This document shows positions 38,994 to 50,870 of a DNA stretch of 64,000 nt, piece by piece; the first letter of the stretch is position 1; every line of letters begins with the position of its first letter. The position numbers were made by a program, and so were the translations under genes. The DNA comes from Undibacterium umbellatum (GTDB lineage: Bacteria > Pseudomonadota > Gammaproteobacteria > Burkholderiales > Burkholderiaceae_D), in NCBI RefSeq assembly GCF_014284125.1, contig NZ_JACOFX010000005.1, positions 248,001-312,000 on the forward strand. The letters run 5' to 3'. The notes beneath the pieces were generated by a model. That model was not told where the DNA came from and did not search any database. It saw only the letters and a program-made list of their open reading frames with translations.

Positions 38994-39330
38994 ACCGTGT
39001 TCTTATTAACGTCGTTCCAGCGTACTTGTGGCTGGAACACAGTGGCGTTTGTTGCATCTCCGTACTCTGATTAATGCGATTACTCTCTGTGGATACAAGC
39101 CGGGTCTCGGCCCGGCAGCCGAGATACTTTCTTTTGCTTCGCCAAAATAAAGTATCCAAAGAAAAGGCGACCGAGGCGTCGCTGCCCCTAACGGGGTTCC
39201 CTTTGCTGCAAGTCAAAAAATGGGAAATCCCCGAAACTCGCTTCGCTCAAACACGGGTATTTCTTCATCCATTTTCCGCCTCGCATCAAAGGCATCGACA
39301 CATCGGAATTCGACGTCAAAATCAACTGCA
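38994..39330. repeat. structured dispersed repeat, family A copy 1
   Basis: About 340 bp downstream of fahA is similar along its length to 50301-50715. It contains several hairpins: GTTCCAGC/GCTGGAAC (39014-39021, 39031-39038), GCCGGG/CCCGGC, and a 14-bp stem with one mismatch (39123-39136 with 39143-39156). Shared text includes GGATACAAGCCGGGTCTCGG. Stem bases differ between copies while pairing is kept. No gene is visible in this 482-bp gap (38942-39423). Confidence 0.8.
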
Positions 39331-39423
39331 AAGCAACTGCAACGTCATCGCGACCGATATTTATATTTCTCAAGGACTCAGTTATACATCCCTTCAGTAA
39401 AGGCCGCGATGCCATTCTTCCCT

Positions 39424-40158
39424 TTAAATCTGCACCCAGTTACCTTTAAAGATAATCGGCCCAGACGGTTTCTCAGGATTGCCCGATCCACCTTTGGGTT
39501 CCAGCGTCACCGCCAGCAAAGGGACGCTGTCTGCGGTCATGTCTTTAGGCATGGGCAGAGTGATGATGCCCTTGTCGGCCACCAGGCCCAGGGATTTGAC
39601 TTTACCGTCTTTACCCACTGCCCACAGTTCCAGGCTCTTGTCAGCAGCGATGTTTTGCGCCGTCACCATGCGTATCTGTAACTGGCCGCGTTTGGTGTCG
39701 CCGGTAATTACAGCGATAGCCTGTGCTTTTTCATCTGACAGAGTGGCGACATAGTTGGTTTGTGGCGTCGCCTGCTGATCCGCCTGTTTGCTGAGCAAGA
39801 CGGAGACCAGTACCACAGCGGCAGTGGTTGAGAACATGCCCAGGCCGCGCCAGAAAGCCAGGTCTTCGCGCAATTTACCCCAGTTGCGCCAGTAGGCCCA
39901 TGGGTCTTTGGTGGTGCTCAGGTTCAGGCGTTTTTCCAGTGCTGGCCAGACTGTTGCCGGTGCTGTGACGGCAGGTGCAAATTCAGCCATGGGTATCAGA
40001 TGCGCTTCCCATTGGCCTACCACCTGGCGCAAGGCTGCATCCTGTTTCAGCCAGGCTTCAAATCGGCGGCGTGCGCCACCGCGCAGGGTGCCCAGTACAT
40101 ATTCAGAGGCCAGTTTTTCTTGCAAAGCCGGGTTGTTTTTGAGTTGTAGTAAATTCAT
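39424..40158 (-). CDS. anti-sigma factor, RskA type
   Basis: A 244-residue one-helix membrane protein. The N-terminal cytoplasmic domain (ASEYVLGTLRGGARRRFEAW) is the sigma-binding part, the membrane helix is at about 108-125, and the periplasmic RskA domain follows (LELWAVGKDGKVKSLGLV). It holds its sigma factor at the membrane until a signal triggers release or proteolysis. Its ATG overlaps the sigma gene stop by one base, the usual pair arrangement. There is no clear zinc motif. Confidence 0.88.
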   Translation of the reverse strand: MNLLQLKNNPALQEKLASEYVLGTLRGGARRRFEAWLKQDAALRQVVGQWEAHLIPMAEFAPAVTAPATVWPALEKRLNLSTTKDPWAYWRNWGKLREDLAFWRGLGMFSTTAAVVLVSVLLSKQADQQATPQTNYVATLSDEKAQAIAVITGDTKRGQLQIRMVTAQNIAADKSLELWAVGKDGKVKSLGLVADKGIITLPMPKDMTADSVPLLAVTLEPKGGSGNPEKPSGPIIFKGNWVQI

Positions 40159-40751
40159 TATGCCTCCAGACGTGTGAGGCAGGTGCGCAGCTTGTCGAGT
40201 CCGCGTCTGATCCAGGTTTTCACTGTCCCTATCGGCAATTTCATGTGTTCTGCTACTTCGCTATGCGACAGATCATGGAAAAATGCCATCGCCATCGCCT
40301 GCCTGTGCAAACCTTCCAGACGTGACAGGCAGGATGCCAGTGCTTTGGCATCCTGTGTCAATTCCAGCGTCTGCGCTGGTGTCGGTTCAGTGCTTTCCAT
40401 GGCTTGCATGATTCCCATATCAAAATTATCAGCATCGATTTCTACATCGTGATCAACACGGCGCAAGAGATCGAAAGCGCGATTGCGTACTATCGTTGTC
40501 ATCCAGGTCATGGGTGCTGCCAATCCAGTCTGATAACTGCCCGCGTTATTCCAGATGTTGACAAAACTCTCTTGTAAAACCTCTTCTGCCAACTCACGCT
40601 TAACTAATATACGCAGCGCGAAGCCAAACAGTTTCGCTGAAGTGGCGTCATACAGTAATTTAAATGCCTGCGCGTCTTTGCGGGCGACGGCGGCTAGCCA
40701 GTTTTGTAGCTGGCTGGTATCCAGGGCGGCAGTGGGCAATTGCTTATCCAA
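40158..40751 (-). CDS. ECF RNA polymerase sigma factor (SigK-like)
   Basis: A 197-residue ECF sigma factor. Region 2 (AKLFGFALRILVKRELAEEV, then LQESFVNIWNNAGSY) and region 4 (HSEVAEHMKLPIGTVKTWIR) are clear, joined by a short linker. It recognises promoters for a stress response and is held inactive by the next gene. I do not see its own target promoter in the flanking DNA. Confidence 0.92.
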   Translation of the reverse strand: MDKQLPTAALDTSQLQNWLAAVARKDAQAFKLLYDATSAKLFGFALRILVKRELAEEVLQESFVNIWNNAGSYQTGLAAPMTWMTTIVRNRAFDLLRRVDHDVEIDADNFDMGIMQAMESTEPTPAQTLELTQDAKALASCLSRLEGLHRQAMAMAFFHDLSHSEVAEHMKLPIGTVKTWIRRGLDKLRTCLTRLEA

Positions 40752-40831
40752 TCTTGGCTGTCGTTATAGTGTAGACATGGGTAGAGGTGCGCTGATTTTA
40801 GTCTATTTTTACTTCACACACAGACCACGTA

Positions 40832-41749
40832 TCAGGATTTCTTGCTTTCTGTATGCATAAACAGGGAGGGGTGTTGCTCGGCATATTCACGCAAGAGATT
40901 CCAGACCACACGCACTCTTTGCAGGCGGTACAAGTCACTGGGTGCAGCCAGCCAGTAAGAACGCTCGGTAAAGAAACTGTCTTGCAAAACCGGTACCAGA
41001 GTACCGCTAGCCGGGATGGCATATGGCGGTGCCATGATCAGGCCCATGCCAGCCGCAGCGGCTTCACATTGCGCCATCATGCCTGTGCAGCACAAGCGCC
41101 TTTTTGGCGTAAAGCCCAGCTTGTCGAGAAAGTTGAGTTCATTACTGGCCAGGCGATCTTGTACATAATCGACAAACTCATGCTCGGCCAGGTCGGCCTC
41201 ACTCAGGATGGGTGGATGGCGTGCCAAATAATCTGGTGATGCATATAAATTCAAACGAAAGGTAGCCAGACGAGTAAAAACATAGCGTCCGGTATTGGGT
41301 GGGTCCAGCATGACACCCAGGTCTGCCTCGCGCGTAGCCAGGTTGGCGAAACGCGGTTGTACCAATAAATCCACACTCAGCTCAGGATGGTCTTTCAGCA
41401 GATGTACCAATAAGGGGGCGATGACCAGAGTGCCAAACATTTCAGGCACGCCCAGACGTACTACGCCATGGGCGGAGACACTGGCTGCACCCAATTGATC
41501 GGTGGCAGTCAGGGCCGCGCTTTCCATGGCTTCGGCGTGGGGTAGCAGGGCGTGACCCATCTCGGTCAGCTCATATCCTTCACGGCTGCGGTCAAACAGG
41601 GTGGAGCCCAGTTGGGTCTCCAGCCGATCTATTCGACGTGCCACTGTCGTATGTTCCACCCCCAGGCGGCGTGATGCGCCGGACAGCGTGCCAGCACGGG
41701 CAAGCTCCAGGAAGTAACGCAGGTCAGTCCATTCAGGCATGCTATTCAT
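40832..41749 (-). CDS. LysR family transcriptional regulator
   Basis: A 305-residue LysR protein. The winged helix starts MPEWTDLRYFLELARAGTLS and includes GASRRLGVEHTTVARRIDRL; the C-terminal half is a periplasmic-binding-like domain. I used the ATG at 41749. It is divergent from the TonB receptor gene, 403 bp away, so it may control the receptor, hydrolase and ABC transporter operon. The inducer is not known. Confidence 0.88.
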   Translation of the reverse strand: MNSMPEWTDLRYFLELARAGTLSGASRRLGVEHTTVARRIDRLETQLGSTLFDRSREGYELTEMGHALLPHAEAMESAALTATDQLGAASVSAHGVVRLGVPEMFGTLVIAPLLVHLLKDHPELSVDLLVQPRFANLATREADLGVMLDPPNTGRYVFTRLATFRLNLYASPDYLARHPPILSEADLAEHEFVDYVQDRLASNELNFLDKLGFTPKRRLCCTGMMAQCEAAAAGMGLIMAPPYAIPASGTLVPVLQDSFFTERSYWLAAPSDLYRLQRVRVVWNLLREYAEQHPSLFMHTESKKS

Positions 41750-41966
41750 GGGGCTAATTGTGCGGCAAAGCACATACAGCAGCAAGGTTTAATCCATTTC
41801 TTCTTTGCAATAATGAAAGAATTGGGGATTTTGCACAACAAGTGGGCAGTTTTAATAGCACTGTCTTCACTCTGATGTGCATTTATGCACAAAGGGTGGG
41901 CGTGCATACGCTTTCTAGGATTTTTCTTTCCGTGCACACTGGCTGCCATGCGACATACAACATGTA

Positions 41967-42120
41967 AGAACGTGTTTGCGATCTTACTGCGCGAGCGTGA
42001 TCGGGGCTCATGCGCTGCTCAAAATGCTCATGTACTTAAGTACATACCGCTTTTTGCGCTGCGTTTTTGTTACCCCCGACCCCGCTGACGCTCGCTCGCT
42101 ACAGATCGTAAACGCGTTCT
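41967..42120. repeat. long inverted repeat with nested palindrome, upstream of TonB receptor
   Basis: AGAACGTGTTTGCGATCT (41967-41984) and AGATCGTAAACGCGTTCT (42103-42120) pair in 16 of 18 positions. Inside are pairing CGAGCG/CGCTCG stretches and a 16-bp perfect palindrome ATGTACTTAAGTACAT (42030-42045). The right arm ends 32 bp before the receptor start, so the structure probably lies in the promoter or mRNA leader. The related GTACTWWAGTAC core recurs at 54946 and 55818. Confidence 0.75.
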
Positions 42121-42152
42121 AAAAGGCGCACATAAAAATACAGGAGACAGAA

Positions 42153-44447
42153 ATGAACCAGAGCAAGAGAAAGCAGAAATTCTTACGTCGGTCCGCTGCA
42201 GCATTGTTGGTCGCATCAGGAACCGTTGCAGGTAGCGGTATCAGCCAGGCACAAACAGTAACAGCTCCAGCAAGCACTGAAGCCAGCAATGCCGAACCGA
42301 GCACGGTACTGGTAACTGCCCGTCGTCGTGAAGAATCCCTGCAGGATGTGCCGGTCTCCGTCACTGCTTACTCTGCCGAACAACTCTCCAAAACAGCGGT
42401 TCCTGACATTATCGGCCTGGTACAAAGCTTGCCTAACACCACCATGAAAGCTTCGAGGGCCACCAACTCTACTTTGACGGCCTTCATCCGTGGTGTCGGC
42501 CAACAAGACCCACTGGCCGGTTTTGAAGCAGGTGTAGGTATTTATCTGGATGATGTCTACATCGCCCGTCCGCAAGGCGCGGTGTCTGACATCTATGACG
42601 TAGAACGCATAGAAGTATTGCGCGGTCCTCAGGGGACTTTGTATGGCCGCAATACCATAGGCGGTGCCGTCAAATATGTGACGCGCAAACTGAGGCCGGA
42701 AACCGATGTGCGCCTGAAAGCAACGGTAGGTACCTATGGTCAGACCGATGCAGTGCTGACAGCCAGTTTGCCGGTATCTGAAACCCTGCGGGTTGGTGCA
42801 TCACTGGCAAAATTCAAGCGTAATGGTTATGGCAAGAACTTGCTCACGGGTGCCGATAACTATGACAAGGATGTCACCGCTGCCCGCCTGAGCGCAGAGT
42901 TTACACCGTCCTCAAATTTATTCATTCGTGTATCGGCGGATACCAGCCAGGATGATTCCAGCCCCAAGAATGGCCATCGCCTGACCGTCAGCAATGCCAG
43001 CAAGGCACCGATACTCGACAATGTATTTGATACCCGCGCCAATCTGACGACAGCACTGGGCCATTTGCAGCAAGTAAAACAAAGCGGTGGTTCTGCCCTG
43101 ATTGAATGGCAGATCAATAATGAGCTGACCTTCAAATCCATCACCGCCAGCCGCCGCGATACATCTTATGCGCCTATCGATTTTGATTCTCTGCCTGTAG
43201 TTGATCTGGAAGCACCAGCCGTCTACAAAAACCGCCAGTTCAGCCAGGAATTACAACTCAGCTATAGCGGCAAGACCATACAGGGCGTGGCCGGTGTGTA
43301 TTACATTGACGCCAATGCCTATAATAAATTCGATACTCTCCTGAATGGTGCCTTGCCCTTGTCTGTGTTTACCATGGGTGACGTTGACACCAAGGCCTGG
43401 GCCGTGTTTGCTGATGGCAGCATGAGCTTGTCGGACACTATCAGCGTTTCTGCCGGTGGCCGTTATACCTCGGACACGCGCCAGGCCGCAGTTTTGCGTC
43501 AACTATATCTGGGTACCAAGAGTTCACCAGAAATGGGTAACCCAAGTGCAATACTGTTCCGTACTGACACCAATCTGACCAAGAGCGATCTTGATCGTAC
43601 CGATACCAAGTTCACCCCGCGCCTGTCATTGAACTGGAAAGCCAATGCCGATAACAATGTGTACGCTTCCTGGTCGCAAGGCTTCAAGGGTGGTGGTTTT
43701 GATCCGCGCATGAATGTGGTTGGCACCAAGATCAGCCTGGAAAAGGCAAAAATGGGTTACGAGCCGGAGGAAATCGAAACCGTGGAACTGGGTTTGAAGT
43801 CGCAATTCGACAAGGGTCGCATCATGACCAATGCTGCACTGTTCTTCAGTAATTACAAAAACGTGCAGATACCTGGCTCGGTCGCGGTGGATACCAATGG
43901 TGACGGCAAGGATGATAATTTCGCCGGCGTCACCACAAATGCCGGCAAGGCGCGCATCAAGGGTTTTGAACTGGAAGCGACGGCACGTATAACCGATGCC
44001 TTCCGCCTGTCTGGCATGTTCAGCTATATCGATGCGAAGTACACGCAATTTATCGTCGCTGGTGTGGATGTCGCTAGTCAAAAAGTATTCCAGAATACAC
44101 CCAAGCAATCGGCCAACCTGACTGGTAGCTATGACTGGCCGTTGAACCTGGTTGGCAGGAACGGTACGCTGTCGCTGATCTCCAGCTATTCCTATCGCGC
44201 TGCGACCAACCAGTTTGAAACACCAAATGCACTGCTGGATCAGGAAGCTTATTCGCTGTGGGATGCCAGCCTGGTCTGGACTAGCACAGACAAGCGCCTG
44301 CGTGCTGGCTTGCATGGCAAGAACCTCAGCAATACCAAGTACAAGGTCGCAGGTTATCTGTTCCCAACGCTGGGCCTCGAAGGCAGCACCACAGCCTTCT
44401 ATGGCAATCCAAGAACAGTCTCAGCCACGGTGGAATACCGTTTCTAG
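42153..44447 (+). CDS. TonB-dependent receptor
   Basis: A 764-residue outer-membrane receptor, complete. The signal peptide ends near ISQAQ. The plug starts with STVLVTARRREESLQDVPVS and contains GTLYGRNTIGGAVKYVT; the barrel ends VSATVEYRF. It should bring in a compound too large for porins. The gene is followed closely by a hydrolase (24 bp) and a full ABC transporter, which suggests a complete uptake route. AGGAGACAGAAATG is a very good ribosome binding site. Confidence 0.94.
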   Translation: MNQSKRKQKFLRRSAAALLVASGTVAGSGISQAQTVTAPASTEASNAEPSTVLVTARRREESLQDVPVSVTAYSAEQLSKTAVPDIIGLVQSLPNTTMKASRATNSTLTAFIRGVGQQDPLAGFEAGVGIYLDDVYIARPQGAVSDIYDVERIEVLRGPQGTLYGRNTIGGAVKYVTRKLRPETDVRLKATVGTYGQTDAVLTASLPVSETLRVGASLAKFKRNGYGKNLLTGADNYDKDVTAARLSAEFTPSSNLFIRVSADTSQDDSSPKNGHRLTVSNASKAPILDNVFDTRANLTTALGHLQQVKQSGGSALIEWQINNELTFKSITASRRDTSYAPIDFDSLPVVDLEAPAVYKNRQFSQELQLSYSGKTIQGVAGVYYIDANAYNKFDTLLNGALPLSVFTMGDVDTKAWAVFADGSMSLSDTISVSAGGRYTSDTRQAAVLRQLYLGTKSSPEMGNPSAILFRTDTNLTKSDLDRTDTKFTPRLSLNWKANADNNVYASWSQGFKGGGFDPRMNVVGTKISLEKAKMGYEPEEIETVELGLKSQFDKGRIMTNAALFFSNYKNVQIPGSVAVDTNGDGKDDNFAGVTTNAGKARIKGFELEATARITDAFRLSGMFSYIDAKYTQFIVAGVDVASQKVFQNTPKQSANLTGSYDWPLNLVGRNGTLSLISSYSYRAATNQFETPNALLDQEAYSLWDASLVWTSTDKRLRAGLHGKNLSNTKYKVAGYLFPTLGLEGSTTAFYGNPRTVSATVEYRF

Positions 44448-44471
44448 TCTGTGACACCGAGAGGATATTGC

Positions 44472-45344
44472 GTGACTACTTTCACTGACATCAGCTTTAC
44501 CAGTAGCGATGGCCTGCAATTGTATGCGCGGGATTATGCATCGCGTGGTGGGCCGGCCAAATGTCCAGTCATCTGCATTCATGGCCTGACCCGCAACTCT
44601 GGCGATTTTGAAGAGCTGGCACCGTGGATAGCAGAACAGGGCAGGCGTGTGATTGCGGTAGATGTCAGGGGACGCGGGCGTTCCCAGCACGATGCCGACC
44701 CTGATCATTACAATTCAGTCGTGTACGCGAATGATGTCATCAAGCTCGCCCGCGACCTGGGTATCGGCCGAGCAGTGTTCATAGGTACTTCTATGGGTGG
44801 CCTCATCACCATGACGGTGGCGGCGCGCAAATTGAATTTGATCACTGCTGCCATTCTCAATGATGTAGGCCCCGCCTTGTCGGCAAAGGGCTTGGGACGC
44901 ATAGCCGGGTTTGCTGGCAAGACTGTTGAAGTGAATGACTGGGACGAGGCGACGCACTACATACGACAGGTCAACCTGTCTGCTTTTCCTGGTAATAGCA
45001 TGGAAGAATGGGGCAAGTGGGCCAGGCGGGCTTTCGCCGAGAATGTCGATGGAAAGCTGGCACTGCAATATGACTCTAATATTGCCAGGCCCTTGCAAAC
45101 CGGGCAGTTAAAAAGCAAATCCTGGGTCGCCAATTTTGCTTTCCGCCGTTTGGCCAGAAACCGCCCTACACTCTTGATACGCGGTGACCTGTCTGACCTG
45201 GTGGAGCATGAACAACTCGCCTATATGAAAGACCTGGCACCCGACCTGCAATATGCCGAAGTGAGTGGCGTGGGCCATGCCCCCATGCTGATGGAAGCGC
45301 AGGCACAAAAAGCCATCAGGGAATTTTTAGCCTCAGTGGATTAG
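44472..45344 (+). CDS. alpha/beta-fold hydrolase
   Basis: A 290-residue soluble hydrolase. The oxyanion region is CIHGLTRNSGDF, the nucleophile is in GTSMGG (Ser), an Asp is seen in RGDLSDLV and the His in VSGVGHAPML. It is likely an esterase or C-C hydrolase acting in the cytoplasm. I chose the GTG at 44472, which has AGAGGA eight bases upstream; an earlier GTG (44451) is less well placed. Its position between the TonB receptor and the ABC transporter suggests that it acts on the imported molecule. Confidence 0.88.
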   Translation: MTTFTDISFTSSDGLQLYARDYASRGGPAKCPVICIHGLTRNSGDFEELAPWIAEQGRRVIAVDVRGRGRSQHDADPDHYNSVVYANDVIKLARDLGIGRAVFIGTSMGGLITMTVAARKLNLITAAILNDVGPALSAKGLGRIAGFAGKTVEVNDWDEATHYIRQVNLSAFPGNSMEEWGKWARRAFAENVDGKLALQYDSNIARPLQTGQLKSKSWVANFAFRRLARNRPTLLIRGDLSDLVEHEQLAYMKDLAPDLQYAEVSGVGHAPMLMEAQAQKAIREFLASVD

Positions 45345-45442
45345 ACGAATTGCAGTATGCTTATGTGCATTGTCAACAATGCGTAAAAAATATCGCTGAC
45401 AAAATGCATGTTTACCACAACGTAAAACTAGCAGGAGACAAA

Positions 45443-46642
45443 ATGCAACACAAAAACAGCTTTAAACTCATCTGTCTGAGTCTGGCCCTGAGCAGCGTAT
45501 TCGCCTCAGCCAGCAGCCTTGCACAGGATTTGAAAATTGCCCTGATTGCAGGCAAGACTGGTGCCCTGGAAGCTTATGCCAAGGAAACTGAAACCGGCTT
45601 CATGATGGGACTGGAATACCTGACCGGTGGCAAGATGGAAATCAATGGCCGCAAGATCAAGGTCCTTGTCAAGGATGACCAAAGCAAACCTGACCTGGGC
45701 CGCACCGCGCTGGCTGAAGCCTTTGGTGACGACAAGGTCGACATCGCAGTTGGCACCAGTTCCTCTGGTTCGGCGATTGCCATGCTGCCAGTGGCCGAAG
45801 AATACAAAAAAATACTGATCGTCGAGCCTGCTGTGGCTGATGCAATCACCGGCGAAAAATGGAATCGCTACATCTTCCGCACCAGCCGCAATTCCATGCA
45901 GGACGGGCTGGCTGCTGCCAGCACGATCAAGTCTGGCGGCAGTATCGCCTTCCTGGCGCAGGATTATGCCTTTGGCCGCGATGGCGTGAAAGCAGCCAAG
46001 GATGCTCTGGGTGCAGTTGGTGCCAAAGCCAAGATAGTCCACGAAGAGTATGCTGCCCAAAATACCACCGATTTCACCGCGGCAGCCCAGCGTATTTTCG
46101 ATGTGTTGAAAGACAAGCCAGAACCGCGCGTCTTGCAAATCATCTGGGCCGGCCCCAATCCCATGAACAAGCTGGCCGATATGAAGCCAGAGCGCTTTGG
46201 TATAACCCTGGCACCCGGTGGCAATATCCTGCCTGTCATGAAAAACTGGAAAACCTATGTAGGTACCCAGGGTACGATTTATTATTACTACGACTTCCCA
46301 AAAAACAAGATGAATGACTGGCTGGTCGCTGAACACACCAAACGTTTCAAGTCGCCACCAGATTTCTTTACTGCCGGTGGTTTTGCCGCAGCCAGCGCAG
46401 TGTACACAGCCATCAGCAAAGCCAAATCTACCGACACTGAAAAACTCATCACTGCGATGGAAGGCATGGAATTTGATACGCCAAAAGGCAAGATGAATTT
46501 CCGCAAGGAAGACCATCAGGCCTTGCAATCCATGTACCATTTCAAAATCAAGAAAGACCAGAAAAATGAATGGGACTTACTGGAACTGGTCAGGGAAATA
46601 CCTGCCAGCGAATTGCCAGTCCCAGTCAAGAACAAGCGTTGA
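45443..46642 (+). CDS. branched-chain-type (HAAT) ABC transporter substrate-binding protein
   Basis: A 399-residue periplasmic binding protein of the type I, Leu/Ile/Val family. The signal peptide is MQHKNSFKLICLSLALSSVF, and the mature part has KIALIAGKTGALEAYAKETE and the GTSSSGSAIAM region. The ATG at 45443 follows AGGAGACAAA; the open frame reaches back to 45350. It captures a small amide or acid for LivGFHM-type transporters encoded right after it. The ligand is unknown; the receptor and hydrolase nearby argue against simple leucine uptake. Confidence 0.9.
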   Translation: MQHKNSFKLICLSLALSSVFASASSLAQDLKIALIAGKTGALEAYAKETETGFMMGLEYLTGGKMEINGRKIKVLVKDDQSKPDLGRTALAEAFGDDKVDIAVGTSSSGSAIAMLPVAEEYKKILIVEPAVADAITGEKWNRYIFRTSRNSMQDGLAAASTIKSGGSIAFLAQDYAFGRDGVKAAKDALGAVGAKAKIVHEEYAAQNTTDFTAAAQRIFDVLKDKPEPRVLQIIWAGPNPMNKLADMKPERFGITLAPGGNILPVMKNWKTYVGTQGTIYYYYDFPKNKMNDWLVAEHTKRFKSPPDFFTAGGFAAASAVYTAISKAKSTDTEKLITAMEGMEFDTPKGKMNFRKEDHQALQSMYHFKIKKDQKNEWDLLELVREIPASELPVPVKNKR

Positions 46643-46659
46643 TGACGGCAGGTGGAAAA

Positions 46660-47442
46660 ATGAGTGTCTCACCCTCGCTATCGACGCGTAATCTCAGTAT
46701 ACGGTTTGGCGGCCATGTGGCCGTCAATCAGGTGACTGCAGACTTTTATCCCGGTACTTTGACTGTCATCGTAGGCCCGAATGGCGCTGGTAAAACCACT
46801 TACTTCAACCTGATGTCTGGGCAATTGGCCGCCAGCGCAGGCAGTGTACATTTGTTTGGTGTGGACATCACAAGCAAGGGTGCAGCTGAACGCACGCGCA
46901 GGGGTATAGGCAGGGCGTTTCAACTGACCAATCTCTTCCCTAATTTGTCTGTCATCGAAAATGTGCGGCTGGCTGTGCAAAGCAAGGCAGGCCAGGGTTT
47001 GAACATTTTTTCCTTATGGTCTTCCCATGCCAGTCTGTTGAAGCGGGCAGAACATTACCTGCACAAAGTTGCACTGGCAGACCGCAAGTCGGACAAAGTC
47101 TCAGCACTGTCACACGGTGACAAGCGCAAACTCGAAGTTGCCATCTTGCTGGCGCTGGAGCCAGAAGTCATGATGTTTGATGAGCCCACGGCAGGCATGA
47201 GTGTCGATGAAGTGCCAGTGGTGCTGGACCTGATCCACCAGGTCAAGGCCGAACGCAAGAAAACCATCTTGCTGGTTGAGCATAAGATGGACGTAGTGCG
47301 TTCACTTGCTGACCGCATCATCGTCTTGCATAACGGTGCGCTGGTGGCAGATGGTGAACCTGTCAGCGTCATGGCGTCTGCCATCGTGCAGGAAGCTTAT
47401 CTGGGCGTTGCCCCTGAAACCACGGGAGAGCAACATGTCTGA
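46660..47442 (+). CDS. livG: ABC transporter ATP-binding protein, LivG type
   Basis: A 260-residue ATPase. Walker A is GPNGAGKTT, the signature is ALSHGDKRKLEVAI (a degenerate LSGGQ, common in LivG), and Walker B is VMMFDEPTAG. It powers the transporter with the partner ATPase that overlaps its end. A start at 46642, overlapping the preceding stop, is possible, but the ATG at 46660 has AGGTGG before it. The symbol shows family only. Confidence 0.92.
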   Translation: MSVSPSLSTRNLSIRFGGHVAVNQVTADFYPGTLTVIVGPNGAGKTTYFNLMSGQLAASAGSVHLFGVDITSKGAAERTRRGIGRAFQLTNLFPNLSVIENVRLAVQSKAGQGLNIFSLWSSHASLLKRAEHYLHKVALADRKSDKVSALSHGDKRKLEVAILLALEPEVMMFDEPTAGMSVDEVPVVLDLIHQVKAERKKTILLVEHKMDVVRSLADRIIVLHNGALVADGEPVSVMASAIVQEAYLGVAPETTGEQHV

Positions 47443-48160
47443 AGCCATACTGACACTGGCCGGTGTGCATACCCATATCGGCGAATACCATATCCTGCAA
47501 GGCGTGGACATGCAGGTGCCACGTGGCGGTCTTTCGGTTTTGCTGGGTCGTAATGGCGCAGGCAAGACCACGACCCTGCGTACCATCATGGGCTTGTGGA
47601 AAGCCAGCCAGGGCAAGATACATTTTGATGGCCGCGATATCACCGCCATGGCAACGCCAGACATCGCACAGCTAGGCATTGCCTATGTGCCAGAAAGCAT
47701 GGCGATATTCTCTGACCTGACAGTCAAAGAAAACCTGCTGCTGGCAGCACGTAATGGCCCGCTCGATAGCAGCCGAGTCGAATGGATATGCGGCTTCTTT
47801 CCTGCATTGAAAAAGTTTTGGAATTACCCGGCAGGCAATCTGTCCGGCGGTCAAAAACAAATGGTTGCGATCGCCCGCGCCATCGTTGAGCCGCGCAAAC
47901 TGATACTGGTGGATGAACCGACCAAGGGTCTGGCACCTGCCATCATCCTTAGCTTGATGGCTGCCTTCAATGAGCTGAAGGCTAGCGACACCACCATTTT
48001 GCTGGTGGAACAGAATTTCAATTTCGTACGCAAGCTGGGGGACACGGTAGCCGTCATGGATGATGGCCGTGTCGTACATACCGGCAGCATGCAGGCACTG
48101 GCTGAAGACAATGACTTGCAACAGCATTTGCTGGGTTTGTCACTGGCTGCGCATCAATAA
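47435..48160 (+). CDS. livF: ABC transporter ATP-binding protein, LivF type
   Basis: A 241-residue ATPase. Walker A is GRNGAGKTT, the signature is LSGGQKQM and Walker B is LILVDEPTKG. Its start overlaps the livG stop by eight bases, which favours coupled translation and equal amounts. It forms the second nucleotide-binding subunit. Confidence 0.93.
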   Translation: MSEAILTLAGVHTHIGEYHILQGVDMQVPRGGLSVLLGRNGAGKTTTLRTIMGLWKASQGKIHFDGRDITAMATPDIAQLGIAYVPESMAIFSDLTVKENLLLAARNGPLDSSRVEWICGFFPALKKFWNYPAGNLSGGQKQMVAIARAIVEPRKLILVDEPTKGLAPAIILSLMAAFNELKASDTTILLVEQNFNFVRKLGDTVAVMDDGRVVHTGSMQALAEDNDLQQHLLGLSLAAHQ

Positions 48161-48176
48161 AGCAAGAGGAAGAATA

Positions 48177-49208
48177 ATGACAGATACTGTTCTTGATAAT
48201 ACTGCCAAGCCAGAAGTTGCCAGCCTGCCGACAGCGCCACGCGATATCTGGCCGTTGATCCTGGTGCCAGCCCTGGCACTGCTGATGCTGCCACTGGTGG
48301 GAAGCTTCCCCACCTGGATCACCCTGACCGTCGCAGGCCTGGCCATGGGCATGATGATCTTTATCATGGCCAGCGGCCTGACCCTGATCTTTGGCTTGAT
48401 GGATGTATTGAATTTTGGCCACGGCGCTTTTGTTTCCGTCGGTGCCTTCGTCGCTACCCTGGTTTTGTTGCCCATGCATGGCTGGATGGAAGCGGATTCG
48501 CTATTGATGAACCTGACTGCACTGGGCCTGGCTATCCTGCTGGCGATGCTGGCAACCGGCTTGCTGGGCTGGGCGTTCGAACGCATCATCATCATGCCTG
48601 TCTACGGGCAGCATCTGAAACAAATCCTCATCACCATGGGCGGCATGATCGTTGCCGAACAGATGATCAATGTCATCTGGGGTGCAGAGCAAATCCCGCT
48701 ACCGCTGCCGACCAGCTTGCGCGGTTCCATCCTGCTGGGTGATGCTGCCATAGAGAAATACCGCCTGATCGCAGTCGTGGTTGGCTTGCTGGTATTCGTT
48801 GCCATGTTCCTGGTGCTGAACCGCAGCAAGCTGGGTTTGCTGATACGGGCTGGTGTAGAAAATGGCGAAATGGTGGAAGCACTTGGCTACCGCATACGCC
48901 GCCTGTTCGTGCTGGTGTTTGCTGCCGGTTCGGCATTGGCTGGCCTGGGTGGTGTCATGTGGGGGCTGTACAAGGAAAGCCTGACCGCAGCCATGGGCGG
49001 TGACATCATGGTCATGGTGTTCATCGTCATCATCATCGGTGGTCTGGGTTCTGTCGGCGGTTGTTTTATCGGTGCCCTGCTGATGGCACTGGTTGCCAAT
49101 TACGCCGGTTTCCTGGCACCCAAGCTGGCACTGGTGTCCAACATCTTGCTGATGATCGCCGTGCTGCTCTGGCGTCCGACTGGCTTGTACACCGTGGTAA
49201 GGCGTTAA
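48177..49208 (+). CDS. livH: branched-chain-type ABC transporter permease, LivH type
   Basis: A 343-residue inner-membrane protein with eight or nine helices. It includes the LivH signature LIFGLMDVLNFGHGAFVSVG and VIIIGGLGSVGGCFIGA. The first 30 residues are soluble and longer than usual. It forms the channel with LivM. The ATG at 48177 follows AAGAGGAAGA. Confidence 0.93.
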   Translation: MTDTVLDNTAKPEVASLPTAPRDIWPLILVPALALLMLPLVGSFPTWITLTVAGLAMGMMIFIMASGLTLIFGLMDVLNFGHGAFVSVGAFVATLVLLPMHGWMEADSLLMNLTALGLAILLAMLATGLLGWAFERIIIMPVYGQHLKQILITMGGMIVAEQMINVIWGAEQIPLPLPTSLRGSILLGDAAIEKYRLIAVVVGLLVFVAMFLVLNRSKLGLLIRAGVENGEMVEALGYRIRRLFVLVFAAGSALAGLGGVMWGLYKESLTAAMGGDIMVMVFIVIIIGGLGSVGGCFIGALLMALVANYAGFLAPKLALVSNILLMIAVLLWRPTGLYTVVRR

Positions 49209-49211
49209 GAC

Positions 49212-50285
49212 ATGAATGCAATGAAACAAATCCTGTCGGATGATTTTCCACGTAACCGCTGGCTGGCGCTGATCCTTGTGGCGATATTTTTGGGCCTGGC
49301 CTGTGCGCCCTTTATCACCAGCGGAGCCCGGCCTTTGAACACTGCTGCCACCATCTGCGTGTATATCGTGCTGGTTGCTTCGTATGACCTGTTGCTGGGC
49401 TATACCGGCATCGTCTCCTTTGCTCACACCATGTTTTTTGGCATAGGTGCATACGGTATAGGTCTGGCGCTGGCCGGCGGCACGCCAACCTGGGGACTGG
49501 CCGCTATGGGTTTGCTGGCGGCATTGCTGGTGACACTGGTGCTGGCCCTGATCGTTGGTCTTTTTGCCTTGCGTGTGCGCGCAATTTTCTATGCCATGAT
49601 CACGCTGGCGGTAGCGTCTTCCTTTGCTGTGCTGGCATCGCAATTGTCGGATTTTACCGGCGGCGAGGATGGCAAGACTTTTAGTGTTCCGGCTCTCTTG
49701 TCGCCTGCTTATCGCCTGTTTGAGGCAGAGATATTTGGCCGTGTGGTGGATGGCAAGGTGATTACCTATTACATAGTATTTATTGGTAGTGCCCTGTTAT
49801 TCCTGTTCTTGTTGCGGGTCGTCAATTCGCCTTTTGGCCGGGTCTTGCAGGCAATACGCGAAAATGATTTCCGTGCCGAGGCACTTGGTTATCGCACCGT
49901 GTATTACCGCATCTTGGCGAATTGCATTGCGGCCCTGGTTGCAGCCATGGCGGGGGCGTTGATGGCTTTGTGGCTGCGCTATGTCGGGCCCAAGACCATG
50001 CTGAGTTTTGAAGTCATGACAGATATTTTGTTGATCGTGGTGATAGGTGGCATGGGGACGATGTATGGGGCGGTAGTTGGTGCGACCCTGTTCATACTGG
50101 CGCAGAATTATTTGAAGAGTCTGATGGGCGTGGCCTCGTCGTCTTTGGCTGACGTGCCGCTGCTGGCGAGTGCTTTGCATCCGGACAGATGGATGTTGTG
50201 GCTGGGGGTATTGTTTGTGGTGTCTATTTATTTTTTTCCAGCGGGTATAGTTGGGAAATTGAGGGGGGCAACTAAGGCTGGTTGA
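49212..50285 (+). CDS. livM: branched-chain-type ABC transporter permease, LivM type
   Basis: A 357-residue membrane protein. The signature is YDLLLGYTGIVSFAHTMFFG and the cytoplasmic loop has AIRENDFRAEALGYRTVYY. It pairs with LivH and ends the operon that begins with the TonB receptor. No defect is visible. The 585-bp gap after it holds repeats. Confidence 0.93.
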   Translation: MNAMKQILSDDFPRNRWLALILVAIFLGLACAPFITSGARPLNTAATICVYIVLVASYDLLLGYTGIVSFAHTMFFGIGAYGIGLALAGGTPTWGLAAMGLLAALLVTLVLALIVGLFALRVRAIFYAMITLAVASSFAVLASQLSDFTGGEDGKTFSVPALLSPAYRLFEAEIFGRVVDGKVITYYIVFIGSALLFLFLLRVVNSPFGRVLQAIRENDFRAEALGYRTVYYRILANCIAALVAAMAGALMALWLRYVGPKTMLSFEVMTDILLIVVIGGMGTMYGAVVGATLFILAQNYLKSLMGVASSSLADVPLLASALHPDRWMLWLGVLFVVSIYFFPAGIVGKLRGATKAG

Positions 50286-50300
50286 TTTGGTTATGAAATA

Positions 50301-50715
50301 ACCGTGTCCTTTATTTAAGTCTCTCCAGCGTAGGCTGGAGGTTACCGAGCTGGCGCCCCAGTGGTGCTCGTTGCATACTTGAGTTTTTAATAAAGAGATT
50401 GCCCTTCGTGGATACAAGCCGGGTCTCGGCCCGGCGGCCGAAATTCTTTCTTTGCGTCGCCAAAGAAAGAATTCAAAGAAAGGCGACCCAGGCGTAGCCG
50501 CCCCTGCGGGGTGCCCGTTTGTGCAGTACAAAAAATGGGAAATGCCCGAAACTCGCTCCCCTTGCAGGGCGCGCAATCGCTTGCAAGCGATTGCCGTTGC
50601 GCTGGCGAGGTGCATGCACCTCGAAACCCCAGCTACACCTCAAACATGGGCATTTTTTATCCATTTTCTGTACTGCACAAACGGCGTCTACACATGGGAA
50701 CTGCGAAAAGTCAAA
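50301..50715. repeat. structured dispersed repeat, family A copy 2 with inserted hairpin module
   Basis: Similar to 38994-39330. Stems are CTCCAGC/GCTGGAG (50323-50329, 50334-50340), a 13-bp perfect stem (50442-50454 with 50461-50473), and an outer stem of about 27 bp (50521-50547 with 50648-50678). An extra block of about 85 bp inside the outer stem has two perfect palindromes, of 22 bp (50573-50594) and 18 bp (50606-50623), followed by AAACCCCAGCTACACC. Copy 1 lacks this block, which resembles part of 55693-55886. Confidence 0.82.
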
Positions 50716-50769
50716 AGCAACGTCAAACCCAACAGCAACGTCAAACCCAACAGCAACGTCAAACCCAAA
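50716..50769. repeat. three 18-bp tandem repeats
   Basis: The unit AGCAACGTCAAACCCAAC occurs three times in direct contact, the last with one change. It sits at the edge of repeat copy 2. Copy 1 has a less regular CAACTGCAAAGCAACTGC at the same place. It is not a CRISPR array because there are no spacers. Confidence 0.85.
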
Positions 50770-50870
50770 AGCAACACCAACGATTCACGTGATTTTGTCC
50801 CTTAGCTTTTTGCAAGCGGCAGGCCATCCGCGTACTCCCCCTACAAAGCCTGGCCTGTCGTTCCTGCAAA

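What the first reader, a model, noticed from the sequence alone, without database searches (positions are those of the whole stretch)
38994..50715. Two copies of a ~340-415 bp structured repeat keep their hairpins through compensatory changes
The elements at 38994-39330 and 50301-50715 align over most of their length, yet stem bases differ while pairing survives. In the main stem (39123-39156 against 50442-50473), counting from the loop, at least five pairs changed on both sides (for example T-A to C-G, C-G to T-A, A-T to T-A). The first stem also went from GTTCCAGC/GCTGGAAC to CTCCAGC/GCTGGAG. Such covariation suggests selection for structure, as a mobile non-coding element, a structured RNA or a protein-binding cruciform.
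Basis: seen in the sequence. Interest (0 to 1): 0.75.

Follow-up and report, generated by a model that had tools for sequence, protein, structure and literature searches.

The report
Triple-helix RNA arms of mobile cassettes
The two repeats are copies of a family that has no match in the RNA catalogue Rfam and recurs dozens of times in this genome and in many other proteobacteria; base changes across copies preserve a fold that includes a predicted triple helix, the working molecule is likely RNA, and because in several genomes copies face outward in pairs around a gene they are likely the arms of a new kind of mobile gene cassette.

Summary
The window's genome has 39 strong matches. A model built from 51 copies finds the family in 52 of 150 genomes of the order, 54 of 274 of the class and 51 of 398 of the phylum (samples overlap). 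No Rfam match to the element.

Covariation is overwhelming. G.U wobbles mark the minus strand as the selected one, hence likely RNA (86 against 5; hairpin 2 in distant lineages 32 against 0, but the lower stem D there is neutral, 39 against 44). The finding's main stem is half of a pseudoknot whose second helix pairs in many different sequences, and a pyrimidine loop follows triple-helix rules (T.AT, C.GC, G.TA), as in telomerase RNA (recalled).

In 27 chosen genomes, neighbours under 2,500 nt are 98 divergent, 3 convergent and 9 tandem. Of 25 wide pairs that I examined, 21 enclose an ORF, such as Mrr, GmrSD, HNH or RES. I read the repeats as arms of a non-autonomous mobile cassette; the window holds two solo arms. 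Enzyme, transcription, ends and target site are unknown. Defence enrichment was not shown.

The parts
39095..39370 (-). Copy 1: structured element, selected strand is minus (5' side near 39370, hairpin 1 at the 3' side); model match 39098-39291
   Evidence: CM match G000:C59:287098-287291 minus, 174 bits; sequence
39099..39116 (-). Copy 1 hairpin 1 (GCCGGG/CCCGGC); its loop is also complementary to the flank at 39119-39122 (alternative pairing)
39123..39156 (-). Copy 1 hairpin 2, the finding's main stem = long helix of the predicted pseudoknot
39139..39143 (-). Copy 1 TCGCC: loop side of the second pseudoknot helix
   Evidence: complementary to 39166-39170; covariation across lineages
39158..39165 (-). 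Copy 1 third strand (AAAGAAAA on plus, TTTTCTTT on minus), mirror image of the hairpin-2 purine arm
39166..39170 (-). Copy 1 GGCGA: partner of the hairpin-2 loop
39185..39196 (-). Copy 1 hairpin 3 (CCCC/GGGG)
39201..39291 (-). Copy 1 long stem D with conserved apex (GCTTCGC at 39240-39246)
39300..39370 (-). Copy 1 leader: degenerate GTTGNN hexamers (on minus), length variable between copies
39014..39038 (.). Copy 1 hairpin GTTCCAGC/GCTGGAAC (the finding's first stem), a separate module
50400..50775 (-). Copy 2: same element; model match 50417-50683, selected strand minus
   Evidence: CM match G000:C59:298417-298683 minus, 160 bits
50418..50435 (-). Copy 2 hairpin 1
50442..50473 (-). Copy 2 hairpin 2 (main stem of the finding)
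   Evidence: family covariation
50457..50461 (-). Copy 2 TCGCC, complementary to GGCGA at 50482-50486
   Evidence: family covariation
50475..50481 (-). Copy 2 third strand (AAAGAAA on plus)
50516..50683 (-). Copy 2 long stem D with an extra ~80-nt module in the apical loop (also in L040 and L043)
50690..50775 (-). Copy 2 leader of GTTGNN hexamers

Best explanation
Both repeats are copies of one dispersed family whose minus strand keeps, by compensating base changes, a fold with a predicted triple-helix pseudoknot, and which is likely transcribed into RNA and likely forms the arms of a non-autonomous mobile gene cassette. Shown by comparison: nested stems; a pseudoknot helix between the hairpin-2 loop and a downstream segment; a loop strand that follows pyrimidine triple-helix rules against the hairpin-2 purine arm; and G.U wobbles on one strand of hairpin 2. 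Also shown, in the genomes I chose: neighbouring copies mostly lie back to back with their 5' ends inward, and most wide pairs enclose a gene. Inferred: the RNA is made, the arms mark the mobile unit, an enzyme supplied in trans recognises the folded RNA, and the gene between the arms travels as cargo. Solo copies, such as the two in the window, would be single arms left after loss of a partner or inserted alone. Untested: the enzyme, the ends, the target site and whether mobility is still active.
For: Structure: (51 copies; 27 of 55 pairs doubly changed; 312 double-change cells against 101 +- 7, 0 of 500). (third arm is the mirror image of the purine arm: 455 of 560 matches against 370 +- 7 shuffled, 0 of 2000; direct-repeat model 312 against 317). 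One search, on an alignment whose model held this region unpaired: second helix of 5 or more pairs in 59 of 82 rows against 14.4 +- 3.0; triplets 379 of 432 against 298 +- 7, and 62 of 89 at non-A positions against 20.6 +- 3.6, 0 of 1000 each. Strand: 86 against 5; hairpin 2, 32 against 0. Dispersal: 39 matches of 124 bits or more in the own genome; 36 of 92, 47 of 222 and 31 of 213 genera; exact-pattern stretches in named genomes. Pairing: (98 divergent, 3 convergent, 9 tandem under 2,500 nt; 27 chosen genomes, 380 matches). Cargo: six pairs of G062 share one inner frame around six unrelated ORFs; others. A convergent pair (L238) encloses what read as ordinary cobalamin-type genes instead (named by eye).
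Against: No transcript was seen. No empty site or target duplication was found: one genome per species is held, and the search with copy 2's flanks gave no usable site (judged from its table). No enzyme is linked: no enclosed ORF matched a transposase or recombinase family (many match no family), and reverse transcriptase occurs in 5 of 10 element-bearing and 2 of 5 genomes without a match. All 3 close pairs of G096 are convergent, as is one of G049, and at 2,500-4,000 nt there are 4 convergent, 3 tandem and 0 divergent, so 'outward arms' is not universal. Many copies are solo. The wobble asymmetry is absent in the lower stem D of distant lineages (39 against 44) and weak in hairpin 1 (5 against 3). 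For the alternative pairing of hairpin 1 two of five measures do not exceed shuffles. PADLOC hits at E<=1e-15 fall in 4 of 20 cargo pairs tested and in 2 of 10 outer neighbours, so defence enrichment is not shown. The wide pair of the window's own genome encloses an ordinary enoyl-CoA hydratase gene.
Confidence: 0.5

Rival explanations
1. A 3'-end RNA element: the repeats spread singly and act at the ends of genes, with the triple helix shielding or ending transcripts; pairs arise because both sides of an intergenic gap receive one.
For: In the own genome the single copies lie downstream of a same-strand gene in 26 of 31 rows, 23 of 28 after removing three double-counted copies (genes called by a home-made codon score). 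Some leaders directly follow terminator-like hairpins, and hairpin 1 is followed by GTTTTG in several copies of one lineage (by eye).
Against: It does not explain a shared inner frame around six unrelated genes in G062, nor 14 divergent against 0 convergent pairs at 600-2,500 nt.
Confidence: 0.25
2. A guide-type RNA: the arm is the scaffold of an RNA-guided nuclease or recombinase (as omega RNA or bridge RNA), read outward across the element's end.
For: Outward reading, a large pseudoknotted fold, and mobility-like distribution.
Against: No Rfam match. No enclosed ORF matched a TnpB, IscB or recombinase family; genes elsewhere were not searched. In the own genus the sequence beyond hairpin 1 looks conserved for about 100 nt rather than variable (by eye).
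Confidence: 0.1
3. A DNA element of REP, BIME or MITE type whose hairpins act as DNA (cruciform or single strand).
For: Dispersed copies, inverted pairs, composite hairpins, GNA apex loops that are also stable in DNA (recalled); neutral wobble counts for the lower stem D of distant lineages (39 against 44).
Against: One-sided wobble pairs: 86 against 5 and 32 against 0 for hairpin 2 in distant lineages. A DNA hairpin would tolerate both kinds alike.
Confidence: 0.1
4. Old sequence debris whose resemblance between copies reflects common descent and gene conversion, without present function.
For: Related copies share changes, and the shuffles do not remove relatedness.
Against: Many different sequences of the pseudoknot helix keep pairing, and triplet rules hold at changed positions.
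Confidence: 0.05

Closest known systems
Telomerase RNA pseudoknot with pyrimidine-motif triple helix (K. lactis type; recalled, papers seen only as listing and abstract starts)
   Same: Same predicted topology: short helix, pyrimidine loop in the major groove of the long helix, U.A-U triplets with an embedded C.G-C; here also G.T-A.
   Different: No linked reverse transcriptase; bacterial, dispersed, ~190-nt core; homology not claimed.
Mobile insertion cassettes, MITEs and TIMEs (passenger genes between transposon ends; PMC4133298 and PMC3281130 seen as listing and abstract starts)
   Same: Non-autonomous, inverted ends, passenger gene inside, presumed mobilisation in trans.
   Different: Ends are ~200-nt structured sequences likely selected as RNA; no parent transposon known and no target duplication found.
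IS200/IS605 and omega RNA (HEARO) elements (recalled)
   Same: RNA read outward across the end of a mobile element.
   Different: No TnpB or IscB among the enclosed ORFs scanned, no Rfam match, and an RNA at both ends.
REP/BIME and Neisseria intergenic mosaic repeats (dRS3; recalled, papers seen as listing)
   Same: Intergenic, palindromic, often in inverted pairs; a hairpin like dRS3 (recalled) lies next to own-genus copies.
   Different: Far larger, with one-sided wobbles, a predicted triple helix and enclosed genes.
BRE, the betaproteobacterial repeat (PMC3110155; passages and section 14 read)
   Same: Repeat in Betaproteobacteria, suspected mobile, linked to a small RNA.
   Different: About 90 bp, often in tandem and variable in number; its sequence is not in the text read, so overlap could not be tested.

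Membership tests
Rfam families (any) | Score at or above a family's gathering cut-off | tested here: not met
   Window: no match; copy 1 region at relaxed threshold: two hits far below cut-off, E 0.15 and 4.7; 20 loci from other lineages: only an SRP RNA near one pair
MITE / mobile insertion cassette | Inverted ends around non-autonomous or passenger DNA | tested here: met
   98 divergent against 3 convergent neighbours in 27 chosen genomes; enclosed genes
MITE / mobile insertion cassette | Ends match an autonomous transposon | not tested
   No IS library was searched; no enclosed ORF matched a transposase family
MITE / mobile insertion cassette | Target-site duplication | tested here: inconclusive
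   Outer ends of several pairs read by eye; no clear duplication, and no empty site
REP/BIME | Short (20-40 nt, recalled) palindrome acting as DNA | tested here: not met
   ~190-nt core with one-sided wobbles
HEARO / omega RNA | Match to the RNA family | tested here: not met
HEARO / omega RNA | Adjacent TnpB/IscB gene | tested here: inconclusive
   No enclosed ORF scanned and 96 matches such a family; the genomes were not searched for them
Telomerase-like triple-helix pseudoknot (works like) | Pseudoknot helix plus pyrimidine-motif triplets | tested here: met
   By covariation only:
Telomerase-like triple-helix pseudoknot (works like) | Associated reverse transcriptase | tested here: not met
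   RVT_1 in 5 of 10 bearing genomes and 2 of 5 without a match
Integron gene cassette | attC site and arrays beside an integrase | not tested
   Copies are dispersed; attC models and integrase were not searched
BRE repeat | Sequence identity to BRE | not testable with these tools
   Sequence not in the text read

The most novel reading that the evidence does not exclude
A widespread, previously unrecognised class of mobile gene cassettes in proteobacteria, with a fragment also on a Fusobacteriota plasmid, whose two ends each encode an outward-reading RNA built on a telomerase-like triple-helix pseudoknot; an enzyme supplied in trans recognises this RNA and moves the unit together with whatever gene lies between the arms, several of them nucleases or toxin-like genes.
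Probability: 0.35. Interest if true: 0.95.

Novelty: categorically new. Interest (0 to 1): 0.85.

Why it matters
If right, a large family of structured RNAs has been missed although it lies in tens of copies in some sequenced genomes, and it marks a route by which single accessory genes spread without carrying their own transposase. The triple-helix pseudoknot would be a bacterial counterpart of a fold best known from telomerase (recalled), supported here by sequence covariation including G.T-A triplets. Even if mobility is disproved, a new RNA family with a covariation-supported triple helix is testable at once by probing and RNA-seq.

Tried and rejected
Direct repeat of the purine arm pairing alternatively with the 5' arm: rejected. 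DNA cruciform: disfavoured, not excluded. Plasmid or phage origin: no blastn match for copy 1; one viral contig with one exact common pattern; the only plasmid record matched by a pair of another lineage is one of Ilyobacter, over 52 bases of the query. E. coli: no match for one pair of another lineage. Reverse transcriptase as required partner: no correlation. Defence enrichment of cargo: not demonstrated (control). Clean enclosure of the TIR gene in L126: dropped, because a third copy lies beside it. Empty-site comparison for copy 2: not usable. A first own-genome alignment with long flanks and three extraction scripts were unusable or incomplete and replaced. One search, a loose search for the pseudoknot in all loci, crashed after partial output; it is not used and one search replaced it.

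Choices and dropped rows. One search used 82 of 86 rows (region or loop too short or long); its 26 helix strings are those of 72 rows with 4 or more pairs, and some are trimmed forms of each other. One search used only copies whose stems matched the extraction patterns (56, 48 and 40 distinct stems); the set is the own genome and relatives, nearly all of one genus. One search dropped stems with under 70% pairs. double-counts three copies with split matches. A3 used 51 of the 59 copies offered. The 27 genomes were chosen because they had matches, several because pairs were visible. The 25 wide pairs are those I fetched, not a random draw: the 14 divergent pairs at 600-2,500 nt plus L125, L126, L171, L217, L221, L236, L239, L259, L261, L263 and L278; no clear ORF in L172, L221 and L263; L126 dropped; in L317 the ORF runs into the right arm and is the least certain. 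A seventh G062 pair with a weak second arm (L341, 23 bits) was not counted.
Full report
What was checked. The window is part of G000:C59 (6.46 Mb, 103 contigs, organism not named). Both elements are where the finding puts them, align over most of their length and, folded as plus-strand RNA, beat 100 shuffles each. Ungapped, the main stem shows five double changes; allowing for the one-pair length difference leaves two, plus one unpaired C.T in copy 1. So the two copies alone were modest evidence.

A multicopy family. Blastn with either copy finds tens of further places in the own genome, and a covariance model (R1; built from 51 distinct copies, alignment A3) finds 39 matches of 124 bits or more. 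With R1, 52 of 150 genomes of the order (36 of 92 genera), 54 of 274 of the class (47 of 222) and 51 of 398 of the phylum (31 of 213) have a match. These samples overlap and include the own genome; only 17, 9 and 6 candidates per genome were scored, so the figures are lower bounds. One exact pattern occurs in 112 stretches of named genomes, among them Methylobacter, Thiobacillus, Sideroxydans, Gallionella, Silvimonas and Comamonadaceae. A plasmid of Ilyobacter polytropus (Fusobacteriota) has six blastn places; the one I read carries the pseudoknot stretch. Rfam has no match on the element.

Which strand, and RNA or DNA. Stem mismatches were classed with an aligner that treats both wobble types alike. 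In the own genome and relatives, those that are G.U on the minus strand number 86 and those that are G.U on the plus strand 5 (hairpin 2: 43 to 2; lower stem D: 36 to 3; upper stem D: 7 to 0). In distant lineages hairpin 2 gives 32 to 0, the lower stem D 39 to 44 and hairpin 1 5 to 3. The one-sided pattern in hairpin 2 is what selection on an RNA gives; the neutral result for stem D in distant lineages is against a blanket claim, and that alignment is noisy (172 other mismatches).

Anatomy, 5' to 3' on the minus strand: a leader of degenerate GTTGNN hexamers of variable length in the own genome; long stem D with a conserved apex; hairpin 3; the pseudoknot; hairpin 1, whose loop can also pair with its flank. 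For that alternative pairing, cells paired, double-change cells and covariation score exceed all 500 shuffles, but the numbers of doubly changed pairs and of pair types do not. Own-genus copies add about 100 nt and a dRS3-like hairpin (name recalled).

The pseudoknot and its third strand. The loop of hairpin 2 is complementary to a segment downstream (TCGCC/GGCGA in the window). Between them lies a tract that is the mirror image of the hairpin-2 purine arm, not a direct copy. Read on the minus strand this is a pyrimidine loop that would lie parallel to the purine strand, as in telomerase RNA (recalled; listing). On 82 of 86 matches from 62 loci, aligned with a model that held this region unpaired, 59 have 5 or more pairs (shuffled 14.4 +- 3.0, maximum 23) and 72 have 4 or more (22.4 +- 3.5), in 26 helix strings, some of them trimmed forms of each other. 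Opposite purine-strand A the third strand has T in 317 of 343 positions, opposite G it has C in 54 of 71, and opposite T it has G in 8 of 12. The last is the natural triplet known for T-A inversions (recalled). These are predictions from covariation; no probing was done, and C.G-C triplets usually need protonation (recalled).

Arrangement. In 27 genomes chosen because they carry the family (380 matches; lists), neighbouring copies less than 2,500 nt apart are divergent in 98 cases, convergent in 3 and tandem in 9; at 600-2,500 nt 14 divergent, 0 convergent, 3 tandem; at 2,500-4,000 nt 0 divergent, 4 convergent, 3 tandem. The three close convergent pairs are all in G096; G049 of the same family has one as well. 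In the own genome most copies are solo and most single ones lie downstream of a same-strand gene (26 of 31 rows), as both window copies do.

Enclosed genes. Of 25 wide divergent pairs examined, 21 enclose an ORF or, in four (L123, L334, L335, L259), two. In G062 six pairs share an inner frame that ends in ATCGCGAAGCRATC around six unrelated ORFs, the strongest sign of a cassette. Families found: Mrr type IV restriction enzyme (L321), GmrSD plus Schlafen (L336), HNH (L337, L239), DUF6988/PDC-S52 (L125), Macro (L318), methyltransferase (L320), ADP-ribosyltransferase fold (L335), RES (L261), RraB (L278), DUF2441 (L236), GIY-YIG with an unknown ORF (L259), ABM plus an unknown ORF (L334), enoyl-CoA hydratase (L122, own genome); none for L123, L124, L171, L217, L316, L317 and L319. 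PADLOC at E<=1e-15 hits 4 of the 20 pairs tested, L125, L321, L336 and L337 (L317 was not given to PADLOC). Of ten outer neighbours taken as control, two reach E<=1e-15 through helicase and ABC domains; by Pfam seven are enzymes, transporters or helicase and three match nothing. Defence enrichment is therefore not shown. A convergent pair in L238 encloses what read as ordinary cobalamin-type genes.

Reading. A structured RNA that is dispersed, paired outward and wrapped around exchangeable genes is best explained as the arm of a non-autonomous mobile unit whose enzyme acts in trans on the RNA. Comparative structure is shown; transcription, mobility and the enzyme are inferred. The main rival is a 3'-end RNA element.

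Literature. The library holds open-licence papers only. Seen: listings and abstract starts; for PMC3110155 passages and section 14.

Noticed in passing
L004:592-1452 (G000:C37): A retron type VI reverse transcriptase (PADLOC RT_VI, E 1e-86) ends about 100 nt upstream of one own-genome copy, in sense.
   Followed up: partly
L126 and L342: In two genomes (G092, G136) copies flank what reads as nrdB together with an accessory gene (a CAP12-type TIR protein and a GHKL-type ATPase), suggesting a recurrent site.
   Followed up: partly
L014:2155-2346 and its leader: The hexamer leader of this copy is a run of TTGGGG repeats, and L056 and L055 carry long GTTGCT-type runs; leaders behave like microsatellites.
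   Followed up: no
window 50516-50683, L040, L043: Three own-genome copies have an extra ~80-nt palindromic module inside the apical loop of stem D.
   Followed up: no
L332 and L333: Copies start immediately after terminator-like hairpins with T-runs (by eye), as group IIC introns do (recalled).
   Followed up: no
L136:1251-1349: A copy pair lies just beside an SRP RNA gene.
   Followed up: no
L311: Pseudoknot stretch on plasmid pILYOP01 of Ilyobacter polytropus, outside the proteobacteria; six blastn places, one read.
   Followed up: partly
L179: Only one stretch of the viral contig collection carries one exact common pattern.
   Followed up: no
all copies, minus strand: Translated, the selected strand gives junk peptides such as FFGYFLLAKQKKVT, familiar from annotations (recalled); a literature search with four such peptide words gave no relevant paper.
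   Followed up: partly
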